Source: Pseudomonas sp. HOU2 (lineage in GTDB: Bacteria > Pseudomonadota > Gammaproteobacteria > Pseudomonadales > Pseudomonadaceae). Taken from it: a stretch of 64,000 bases of DNA. Position 1 is the first letter of the stretch, and the number at the start of each line of letters is the position of its first letter. The stretch covers positions 1,674,001-1,738,000 of the forward strand of contig NZ_CP160398.1 in assembly GCF_040729435.1 (NCBI RefSeq), read 5' to 3'. Under the pieces are notes generated by a model that was not told the origin of the DNA, made no database searches, and saw nothing but the letters and a program-made list of their open reading frames with translations. Positions 13,369 through 18,078 of this stretch are shown piece after piece. A program made the translations under genes and the position numbers.

Positions 13369-14142
13369 TTACTTGCCGTAGATATCGAAGGCGAAGTATT
13401 TGTCCTGGATAGCTTTGTATTTGCCGTTTTCACGGATAGCCGTGATGGCGGAGTTGATCTTGTCTTTCAGCGCGTCGCCCTTGCGCACCGCGATGCCTAC
13501 GCCGTCGCCGAAGTATTTGACGTCGGTGAACTGCGGGCCAACGAAGGCGAAGCCTTTGCCGGAATCAGTGTTCAGGAAGCCGTCCTGCAGCAGGGTGGCG
13601 TCAGCCACGGTACCGTCGAGGCGACCGGCGGCCACGTCGAGGTAGATTTCGTTCTGCGAGCCGTATGGCTTGATCTCGGCACCCAGCGGGGCCAGGACTT
13701 CGCGGGCGAAACGCTCATGGATCGAACCACGTTGCACGCCGATGTTCTTGCCCTTGAGCTCAGACAGGTTGTCGCTGACAACGGTGCCTTGCTTCATGAC
13801 CAGACGGGCCGGGGTGTTGTAGTACTTGTTGGTGAAGTCCACGGACTTCTTGCGGTCTTCAGTGATCGACATGGACGACAGGATCGCGTCGATCTTGCGC
13901 ACTTTCAGTGCCGGGATCAGACCGTCGAACTCTTGCTCGACCCACTGGCACTTGACCTTCATTTCTTCACACAGGGCGTTGCCGATGTCGTAGTCGAAAC
14001 CGACGATGCTGCCGTCCGGCGCTTTGGAAGCGAACGGAGGGTAAGCCGCTTCGATACCGATCTTCAGAGGTTTTTCATCAGCGAAGGAATTCAGCGACAG
14101 CACGGACAGTGCCAGGGCGCCAAGCAGCACAAGTTTCTTCAT
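13369..14142 (-). CDS. aotJ: Arginine/ornithine periplasmic binding protein AotJ
   Basis: Substrate-binding protein of the Aot importer (type 3 solute-binding family), 257 residues. It has a classic signal peptide with likely cleavage after NSFA (residue 21) and a mature start [23 protein letters not shown]. The conserved binding segments [15 protein letters not shown] and [19 protein letters not shown] are present. It is the first gene of the operon, preceded by GGAG, with an ArgR-type half-site about 185 bases upstream. Confidence 0.95.
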
Positions 14143-14693
14143 CTTGGGACTCCATCGGTAAAGGGCAAAAACGGCAGAGTGAGCGACAGCCCAATATGCG
14201 AATGGGTGAATCGGGAAAGCGGTGCAGCATCGGTGGGAAATTTCCCGGTGAAACCACCAGGGGTTTCAACGTCAGCCACGATGAGCGAGTGATCGGCATT
14301 CTAACGACAGGCCCGAAGCCGATATTTCTTCAATGCGACAACTAATTACAGATGCACAGAGAAACCCGCTTGAGCGCATTGACAGCCTTGCAAATTCATG
14401 CAAGAGCGAAAGACAGTGAACCGATCTATGCTGCAAATTGCGGGCCTATTATTCGCAAACCCTTCTAATCCGGCAAGCGCAGCGTTGTGTCTTATTTTTC
14501 ACCGGGGGTTTTGAGGCTCTAAAACGGGGCATTGCGTTTCCCTTTGCCCCGCGACGGGGCGGGCGGTTACACATTTGGTTACTCGGATGCGGGTGGGTAA
14601 CAGCGGGAAAGGTCTTACGCGGGAAATCGATAATTATTGGTTGGGTGGTTTGGCTCTCTGACAGGGGATTACTGCGGCGTCTGACAGATTGCT
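14143..14693. other. aotJ upstream region, no gene seen
   Basis: The part next to aotJ should hold its promoter and the ArgR-type half-site at 14325-14340. Bases 14500-14640 contain GC-rich structure, including GCCCCG-CGA-CGGGGC near 14546. Short frames here have no recognisable product or ribosome-binding site. I see no tRNA-like fold. Confidence 0.4.
14325..14340 (-). promoter_or_regulatory. ArgR-type half-site upstream of aotJ
   Basis: Exact TGTCGC-N8-AA match on the minus strand, about 185 bases before aotJ. It is the same pattern as the two sites before aruC and fits ArgR control of the aot operon. Confidence 0.5.
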
Positions 14694-14790
14694 ATCGCTG
14701 GCAAGCCAGCTCCCACACGGATTTCGATTGAGATTGAAATTCCGTTCACACCTGGGAAACCTGTGGGAGCTGGCTTGCCAGCGATGAGGC
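14694..14790. repeat. REP doublet (GGGAGCTGGCTTGCCAGC family)
   Basis: Facing copies of the element CTGTGGGAGCTGGCTTGCCA separated by a spacer. Intergenic, next to the interrupted REP that carries the IS element. Confidence 0.85.
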
Positions 14791-14883
14791 CAGTCCAGCC
14801 ACCCCACAATTGCGCAGGAACTCAAACCTGCAACACACCACAAACCTGTGGGAGATTCTATGTTGCTCAGCAACCCTAGAATC

Positions 14884-15819
14884 TCAAACTGATCGGTATT
14901 CGCCCTGATTCTTCATCAGGGCGAATGCCACTCGGCAGAGCTTGCGAGCAAGAGCTACCAATGCCTGTGTTTTCGAGAAGCCTCTGGCCAGGTAAGACTC
15001 GTAAAAAGGCTTCCACTTGGTTGAGCGACACGCCGCCATTGCGGCGTTGTAGGCTAATCGACGGATCTCCGGATCTCCTTTTTTGCTCAGGAACCTCGGG
15101 CCGTTCTTTTTCCCCGAATCGTCCACCGTCAGATCCATACCCAAAAACGCGATGAACGCGTCGCTGTTGGCAAAGTCACCGCGCATATAGGTCGTTGCCA
15201 ACCCAGTCGCAGTCAGCTCTCCCACGCCCTCGATTGCTTTGCAGCGGCCAATATTGTCATCAATACCGGCCTCTTTGCTGACTTTGCGCAGCAGGTTTTG
15301 AATGACCTTGTCGGATCGCTCGAATGCCTTTTGCTGAGCCGTACGTTCTTTCTTCAGCAAGGGTTCATCGGCCCAGCTCAACATCAGACCCGTATGGTTC
15401 TGAATCAGCGTCGCGCGTCTGTGCAGCAAGCTTTTCAGTACGGTGTAGGCTTTAGGAGGCGGGTTCCAAAGCCGCAGTTTGCTTTGTTCATTCGTCAGAT
15501 AGCGTGCGAGCACGCGTGCATCGCATGGATCATTTTTGGCTCGCTGACCGACACCGCGACGATAGTGGCTGACTCGATAAGCATCCACCACATAGACCTG
15601 ATGTCCCATCGCATGAGCCAGATCAACAGTCTCCAAATGGTAGATATTGGTGGCTTCGACAGCGATAGCGCTTTGCGCGGGCAGAGTTTTGAGCCAACGT
15701 TTGAGGGCGGCACGATCATTCTTGACCGCTTCAATGGTTTCCAGGTCGGCGCGATAGACAACGATTTCGGTCTTGGCGATATCGATACCAACAACCGTCT
15801 GCGAAGTAAGGATTGTCAT
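14884..15819 (-). CDS. IS110-family transposase (DEDD recombinase)
   Basis: A 311-residue recombinase. The N-terminal RuvC-like DEDD domain shows D13 (GIDIAK), E55 (VEATN) and D97/D100 (KNDPCDARV). A central helical region follows, and the C-terminal Transposase_20 domain has the helix-hairpin AIEGVGELTATGL and the serine-containing FLSKKGDPEIRR (S245, probable nucleophile). All key residues are present and the frame is intact, so it may be active. It is predicted to work with the RNA encoded just upstream. Confidence 0.95.
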   Translation of the reverse strand: MTILTSQTVVGIDIAKTEIVVYRADLETIEAVKNDRAALKRWLKTLPAQSAIAVEATNIYHLETVDLAHAMGHQVYVVDAYRVSHYRRGVGQRAKNDPCDARVLARYLTNEQSKLRLWNPPPKAYTVLKSLLHRRATLIQNHTGLMLSWADEPLLKKERTAQQKAFERSDKVIQNLLRKVSKEAGIDDNIGRCKAIEGVGELTATGLATTYMRGDFANSDAFIAFLGMDLTVDDSGKKNGPRFLSKKGDPEIRRLAYNAAMAACRSTKWKPFYESYLARGFSKTQALVALARKLCRVAFALMKNQGEYRSV

Positions 15820-15844
15820 GACGAATCCTCGGAGCTAGGGTTTA

Positions 15845-16005
15845 AGAGCTTGTTGGGGTCTACCGTTGCGCTGGCTTGTCTCTGTCGTCGGTTTACCGAT
15901 GAATTCCTTATTGGCGCTTTGGGTAGAAGGGGCGGGACGAGAAGTCTCCCACGGTCTGTACTGGTCAGAGTCAGAATCGAGTCTGTAGTCCCGCCCACCC
16001 CTTCA
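15845..16005 (-). ncRNA. Putative bridge RNA of the IS110 element
   Basis: The left-end RNA can form a stem GGGCGGGAC/GTCCCGCCC (15988-15996 with 15930-15938) enclosing an internal loop and a small hairpin (TCTG/CAGA). The 5' side of the loop has CAGACTCG (15978-15985), nearly equal to the left target CAGGCTCG. The 3' side has GTGGGAG (15946-15952), complementary to the right target CTCCCAC. A second stem-loop near 15850-15915 has GAAT and ACAAG segments that match the element's own ends. Transcript ends are estimates. Confidence 0.65.
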
Positions 16006-16021
16006 AGTCTAAACATACAAG

Positions 16022-16050
16022 CGAGCCTGCTCGCGATGAGGCCAGCCCGG
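16022..16050. repeat. Right part of the REP interrupted by the IS element
   Basis: CGAGCCTGCTCGCGATGAGG continues the REP whose first part ends at 14854. Deleting the IS restores a complete CTGTGGGAGCGAGC-type REP. Confidence 0.8.

Positions 16051-16122: not shown

Positions 16123-18078
<1,956 letters not shown>

What the first reader, a model, noticed from the sequence alone, without database searches (positions are those of the whole stretch)
14855..16021. IS110-type element whose putative bridge RNA guides match the REP it sits in
The flanks join into a perfect REP when the element is removed, and both junctions carry the CT core (element orientation). The left-end RNA folds as a stem enclosing an internal loop. 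The 5' strand of that loop (CAGACTCG) matches the left target CAGGCTCG except at one position. The 3' strand (GTGGGAG) is complementary over seven bases to the right target CTCCCAC. A second loop has GAAT and ACAAG segments matching the element's own ends. When right and left ends join in a circle, a promoter TTGCTG-17-TATGTT is formed. IS110 bridge RNAs and REP targeting by some Pseudomonas IS are known; the specific guide-to-REP match here is read from the sequence. It suggests an RNA-guided element programmed for a dispersed repeat family.
Basis: partly seen in the sequence, partly recalled or inferred. Interest (0 to 1): 0.85.

Follow-up and report, generated by a model that had tools for sequence, protein, structure and literature searches.

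The report
RNA-guided IS110 element targeting REP repeats
This is a small bacterial jumping gene of the known IS110 family whose own RNA appears to steer it into one class of a short repeat scattered over the Pseudomonas chromosome; relatives with altered guides mostly sit in correspondingly altered repeats, so the guide-to-repeat match is well supported, although the mechanism is already known from other family members.

Summary
The element (16021 to 14855, minus strand, 1167 bp) is an IS110-type IS with a 311-aa transposase and a left-end RNA that folds like a bridge RNA. [quoted passage not shown] Six lie in the rarest of four counted REP classes (43 of about 811 sites; chance about 1.5e-7), the class its guide fits best. 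A sibling IS in the same genome has another guide and sits in the matching class (2 of 2). Over 163 left ends from 52 genomes, guide and left target match at 5.90 of 7 positions against 4.75 +/- 0.15 for shuffled guides. Against each genome's own REP pool, 86 of 109 informative copies took a best-matching class (55.0 expected). Right guide and right target changed together in two lineages; ten copies do not fit. IS621, ISPpu10 and ISPa11 are published precedents, so this is a new member of a known kind. What my ten paper searches did not show is a pool-controlled, within-genome partition of REP classes.

The parts
14855..16021 (-). IS110-type insertion sequence, 1167 bp counted with the left CT core
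   Evidence: seven copies with identical ends in the genome
14884..15819 (-). transposase/recombinase, 311 aa; D13, E55, D97, D100 and S245 in the motifs that fit the DEDD/Ser catalytic set
   Evidence: PF01548, PF02371; NF033542, 167.2 bits, cut-off 140; ISCro4 and IS621 by sequence; motif positions
15868..16004 (-). putative bridge RNA core (element 18-154); exact RNA ends not determined
   Evidence: fold; 45-member alignment; model R1 finds 10 places in the own genome: 7 copies, 2 siblings, 1 remnant
15926..16004 (-). target-binding stem-loop (first loop), outer stem GAAGGGGTGGGCGGGAC/GTCCCGCCCCTTC
   Evidence: outer-stem pairs change on both sides (GC 19 / AT 19 at stem positions 7 and 10; TG, GC, TA at position 8) in 38 distinct segments; positions counted from the 5' end, so homology across the two stem lengths is approximate
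15978..15985 (-). left target guide CAGACTCG (7 of 8 to left target CAGGCTCG)
15955..15976 (-). inner hairpin TTCTGACTCTGACCAGTACAGA between the two target guides
15946..15952 (-). right target guide GTGGGAG, complementary to CTCCCAC
15868..15918 (-). donor-binding stem-loop (second loop)
15903..15907 (-). left donor guide segment GGAAT (matches right end ...GAAT)
15875..15879 (-). right donor guide segment ACAAG (complementary to left end CTTGT)
15874..15874 (-). putative handshake-guide base C opposite target position 7 (G)
   Evidence: 49 of 54 groups parsed: C with commonest target G in 46, G with C in 1 (G080), T with C in 2 (G139, G004)
16022..16034 (-). left half of the target REP, GCGAGCAGGCTCG
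14845..14854 (-). right half of the target REP, core plus CCCACAGG
14868..14873 (-). -35-like TTGCTG in the right end (junction promoter)
   Evidence: weak on its own
16012..16017 (-). -10-like TATGTT in the left end

Best explanation
The element is an autonomous IS110-group insertion sequence. Its left-end RNA is a bridge RNA: the first internal loop pairs with both strands of a REP (left guide CAGACTCG to the left half, right guide GTGGGAG to core plus right half), and the second pairs with the joined ends of the excised circle. The transposase uses it to recombine the circle into the CT core of REPs of class CAGGCTCG|CTCCCAC. Shown here: copy positions, ends, guide-target covariation, REP-class choice beyond the genome's pool. 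Inferred from IS621 and relatives: circle formation, RNA expression, RNA-protein binding, strand exchange.
For: Seven of seven copies at one REP position. Six of seven in the class with 43 of about 811 counted sites (P about 1.5e-7). Mean guide-target match 5.90 of 7 over 163 left ends, null 4.75 +/- 0.15, maximum of 5000 shuffles 5.30; among offsets -40 to +59 from the hairpin anchor only the guide offset stands out (own-minus-other 1.18, next 0.31). Pool-controlled: matched bases 671 against 615.7 +/- 6.7 (maximum of 20000 draws 640), best class chosen 86 of 109 (55.0 expected), 111 copies in 32 genomes. Right guide GTAGGAG goes with CTCCTAC in G094 (5 of 5) and G356 (1 of 1). Family and catalytic residues.
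Against: Guide CAGACTCG never matches the common target perfectly, and L002 has two mismatches. 23 of 163 copies match at 4 or fewer of 7 positions: guides shifted by one base (G128, G383, G005: 10 copies), guides with an extra base (G301, Leaf48: 7), and G091 (1), G186 (1), G213 (2 of 3), G214 (2 of 4). G213's guide has no matching class among the four counted. Guide AAGGCTCG sits in CAAGCTCG in G205 (2 of 2), G290 (3 of 3) and G267 (1 of 1). Right side: 4 copies with GTGGGAG beside CTCCTAC, 1 beside CTCTCAC, and 5 in G080 with GTGAGAG beside CTCCCAC. Tree-based independent contrasts go the right way (same/opposite 4.2/1.0, 3.9/0, 2.0/0, 1.3/0 at four guide positions) but none is significant. 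No RNA evidence here.
Confidence: 0.92

Rival explanations
1. The transposase protein itself recognises the REP; the guide resemblance is incidental or inherited with the lineage.
For: Closely related proteins often share guide and REP class; tree contrasts are individually non-significant.
Against: The match is confined to the guide offset. The guide label (last five bases) needs at least 23 changes on the protein tree, with the same label in distant branches. REP choice follows the guide within each genome's pool. Two elements in one genome choose different REPs.
Confidence: 0.04
2. Copies spread from REP to REP by homologous recombination or gene conversion rather than by guided insertion.
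For: REPs are repeated and near-identical; copies are nearly identical; some left flanks are not REP-like, as after a rearrangement (L104 of G183, L039 of G186).
Against: Flanks beyond the REP differ for all seven copies; choice of the rarest REP class and covariation with guides are unexplained.
Confidence: 0.02
3. The left-end structure is mainly a regulatory 5'-UTR (as reported for ISPpu9, with antisense RNA Asr9), not a guide.
For: ISPpu9 tnp mRNA has a 244-nt structured 5'-UTR and a stable antisense RNA (PMC8450116, abstract and one section).
Against: Does not predict guide-target covariation. The two roles are compatible: the same RNA could be UTR and guide.
Confidence: 0.02

Closest known systems
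IS621 (E. coli; bridge RNA, PMC11208160 and PMC11208158: passages only)
   Same: IS110 group, left-end bridge RNA, CT core, left guide of 7 nt plus core, junction promoter, REP targets, tolerance of one guide mismatch
   Different: Target REP unrelated in sequence; right guide here is longer (7 nt with core); protein similarity remote (70.2 bits)
ISPpu9 and ISPpu10 (P. putida; PMC1525189: abstract, results, tables; PMC8450116: abstract, one section, passages; the ISPpu10 guide figure known only from its legend in PMC11208160)
   Same: IS110 elements, 7 of 7 copies each at one REP position, 2-bp repeat
   Different: I had no sequence of either to compare; five of seven ISPpu9 copies carry a downstream RNA of about 180 nt (Ssr9), for which this element's 29-nt right end has no room
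ISPa11 (P. aeruginosa; PMC11187229, passages only)
   Same: an RNA from the IS co-purifies with its transposase and carries segments matching both strands of a Pseudomonas REP
   Different: IS1111 group: RNA downstream of the transposase, long subterminal repeats, the two target-matching segments in reverse order

Membership tests
IS110 family (IS110 group) | DEDD RuvC-like domain plus C-terminal Tnp domain with conserved serine | tested here: met
IS110 family (IS110 group) | long left non-coding end, short right end, ATA/TAT short subterminal repeats, no long STIR | tested here: met
   202 nt before the ATG, 29 nt after the stop; ends CATAGAAT / CTTGTATG; definition
IS110 family (IS110 group) | circular intermediate | not testable with these tools
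   needs PCR
Bridge-RNA-guided recombinases | RNA with target-binding and donor-binding internal loops | tested here: met
   single folds and two-sided outer-stem changes; the alignment-wide fold was poor, and G080 and G216 fold differently alone
Bridge-RNA-guided recombinases | left guide covaries with left target | tested here: met
Bridge-RNA-guided recombinases | right guide covaries with right target | tested here: inconclusive
   G094 (5 of 5) and G356 (1 of 1) co-change; 142 copies show the one common pair; 10 copies do not fit
Bridge-RNA-guided recombinases | donor loop covaries with element ends | tested here: inconclusive
   both sides nearly invariant
Bridge-RNA-guided recombinases | RNA expressed, bound by the recombinase and required | not testable with these tools
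   no RNA or biochemical data
IS1111 group | RNA region downstream of transposase, 7-17 bp subterminal repeats | tested here: not met
   definition

The most novel reading that the evidence does not exclude
In Pseudomonas, sibling IS110 elements divide the REP pool of one chromosome by guide sequence, and the guides (with the handshake base in at least one lineage) have been re-programmed repeatedly to follow the host's own REP classes, so REPs act as a shared, safe landing field whose sequence drift drives natural re-programming.
Probability: 0.55. Interest if true: 0.55.

Novelty: new member of a known kind. Interest (0 to 1): 0.42.

Why it matters
It gives a natural series of guide-target pairs in one clade, on one recombinase scaffold, with up to more than a thousand empty near-match sites per genome as built-in off-target controls. 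That makes guide tolerance, handshake pairing and re-programming directly testable, and suggests how an IS can multiply while landing between genes.

Tried and rejected
Rfam: six weak matches, all below their gathering scores, none a bridge RNA; five are the REP pair at about 14692-14786. RNAalifold on the MAFFT alignment A1 is poor, because the two length classes of the first stem are misaligned; 2 of 21 pairs showed two-sided change, so the stem was re-examined by single folds. The idea that recombination at the guide locus recurs (remnant L008) was tested with a junction pattern: 1 of 398 genomes, the own one only; not supported. The first promoter script set the -10 one base early; rerun. 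ISPpu9/ISPpu10 sequences could not be compared (none named was on hand).

Rows dropped: one search lists only its best matches, so the family sample is its closer part. Not in the 163 rows: L049 (left end lost), L130 (contig end), L051 and L211 (no left flank), L212-L217 and L226-L229 (no left end of this type found), the distant subfamily L219-L224, L230 and L232-L235, and duplicates L043-L048. The 163 include the remnant L008 and two left ends of Leaf48, one with an N in its flank. One search used 111 of the 163: dropped were the remnant, genomes outside the 37 counted and left targets outside the four classes. Its chance figure used 43/811 although the pool table adds to 813.

Full report
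What is there. The minus strand from 16021 to 14855 is a 1167-bp IS between two ORFs that I read as acetyl-CoA synthetase (16123-18078) and an amino-acid transporter binding protein (13369-14142); those two names are my reading of the translations, not a search. It carries one ORF, 14884-15819, an IS110 transposase (PF01548, PF02371; NCBIfam 'IS110 family RNA-guided transposase'), related by sequence to the solved ISCro4 and IS621 transposases, with D, E, D, D and S in the expected motifs. Without it the flanks read GCGAGCAGGCTCGCTCCCACAGG, a REP.

Copies. The genome (6.05 Mb, one contig) has seven full copies differing at 0-4 positions from the window copy, all at the same point of a REP, with unrelated outer flanks. 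Six are in CAGGCTCG|CTCCCAC and one (L002) in CAAGCTCG|CTCCCAC. A second, related IS (2 copies, L009/L010) has guide AAAGCCAG and lies in CAAGCCAG|CTCCCAC both times. A 76-bp left-end remnant (L008) also starts in CAGGCTCG. Copies 96% identical in protein occur in Pseudomonas sp. TH43 and TH15.

REP pool. Exact counts in the own genome: CAGGCTCG 37 empty, CAAGCTCG 142, CAAGCCCG 115, CAAGCCAG 510, each followed by CTCCCAC; the reversed control pattern gave 0 in all 37 genomes counted. The window element thus prefers the rarest class, which its guide fits best: six of seven, P about 1.5e-7. The sibling's class is the commonest, so its 2 of 2 says little alone. In the 64-kb window no empty CAGGCTCG|CTCCCAC site exists, while 18 sites of the other three classes do, two of them (14763 and 14702) within about 150 bp of the insertion.

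Relatives. A protein search found matches in 172 of 398 genomes drawn from the genus (its list of places is capped). I fetched 115 further regions and parsed 163 left ends from 52 genomes (54 labels, the own genome counting as three). Guides and left targets (7 nt) run in parallel: AAGCCCG with AAGCCCG, AAGCTCG with AAGCTCG, AGGCTCG with AGGCTCG, AAGCCAG with AAGCCAG, AAGCCGG with AAGCCGG, AGCCGCC with AGCCGCC, TAGTTCG with AAGTTCG, CAATTCG with AAATTCG. The mean is 5.90 of 7 matched against 4.75 +/- 0.15 for guides shuffled among groups (none of 5000 above 5.30). Of 163 copies, 73 match 7 of 7, 54 match 6, 13 match 5, 7 match 4, 4 match 3, 10 match 2 and 2 match 1. Of the 23 at 4 or below, 10 (G128, G383, G005) have a guide shifted by one base and 7 (G301, Leaf48) a guide with an extra base; the other 6 are G091, G186, two of G213 and two of G214.

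Pool-controlled test. For 111 copies in 32 genomes with known counts, matched bases are 671 against 615.7 +/- 6.7 expected from drawing REPs at their genomic frequency; 86 of 109 informative copies chose a best-matching class against 55.0 expected. Allowing the one-base shift for both observed and null gives 713 against 657.2 +/- 6.7 and 85 of 109 against 53.3. The test treats copies as independent insertions. Telling cases: G125 (3 of 4 in a class that is 108 of 1074), G367 (3 of 5 in 13 of 423), G254 (2 of 2 in 45 of 1339), G183 (0 of 5 in its 352 CAGGCTCG sites). Against: G205 (2 of 2) and G290 (3 of 3), whose guide AAGGCTCG would fit CAGGCTCG better than the CAAGCTCG they occupy; G267 likewise (1 copy, pool not counted). 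In 140 copies with guides in register, mismatches pile up at the core-distal positions 1-3 (19, 23, 22) and are fewer at 4-7 (7, 6, 7, 4).

Right side and handshake. Of 163 copies, 142 pair GTGGGAG with CTCCCAC. G094 pairs GTAGGAG with CTCCTAC in 5 of 5, and G356 does so in its single copy (the pattern missed its guide). Ten copies do not fit: 4 GTGGGAG with CTCCTAC, 1 GTGGGAG with CTCTCAC, 5 GTGAGAG with CTCCCAC; one more had no parsed guide and 4 no right flank. The base after the right donor guide was parsed in 49 of 54 groups: C where the commonest target position 7 is G (46), G in G080 where it is C (5 of 5 copies), as handshake pairing would ask; in G139 and G004 it is T against C, which does not pair.

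Tree. On a protein tree of 52 rows the guide label (last five bases) needs at least 23 changes, so guides have changed often. Independent contrasts point the right way at four positions but none reaches significance, so the weight rests on the pool-controlled test.

Relation to the literature. IS621 (REP, bridge RNA, covariation over 5,511 target pairs), ISPpu10 and ISPa11 (guides drawn in a published figure, legend seen), ISPpu9/ISPpu10 REP insertion (2006) and natural redirection in ISMch6 are in print (abstracts, passages and named sections read, no paper in full). In ten full-text searches, of which I saw the listings, I met no report of REP-class partition between sibling IS110s or of a pool-controlled guide test; preprints and most subscription papers are not in that library, and I read no supplementary file.

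Noticed in passing
L008:1501-1576 (own genome 5724035-5724110): A 76-bp left-end remnant ends exactly in the right-guide GTGGGAG and continues into an inverted REP, as if a REP had recombined with the guide-coding DNA. The junction occurs in 1 of 398 genomes.
   Followed up: yes
L009, L010 (own genome): Second IS110 sibling, two copies, guide AAAGCCAG, both in CAAGCCAG REPs.
   Followed up: yes
L218, L231 (G046): About 680-bp derivatives with both ends and the RNA region but a truncated transposase, at different CAAGCTCG REPs matching their guide: possible non-autonomous guided elements.
   Followed up: no
L219-L224, L230, L232-L235: A distant IS110 subfamily (27-31% identity) with ends CTTGTATC; in several its left-end RNA seems to copy the left flank into or through the CT (for example ACCCACCCT, GTCCGCCCT).
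   Followed up: no
L071-L073 (G125): Three of the four G125 copies fetched have one in-frame stop in the transposase yet sit in guide-matching (2) or near-matching (1) REPs.
   Followed up: no
window 14702-14777: Inverted pair of CAAGCCAG REPs beside the insertion, not used by the element; gives weak microRNA hits in Rfam.
   Followed up: partly
PMC8450116 (ISPpu9): Asr9 is antisense to the transposase 5'-UTR; if ISPpu9 is built like this element, Asr9 would be antisense to its bridge RNA. My inference.
   Followed up: no
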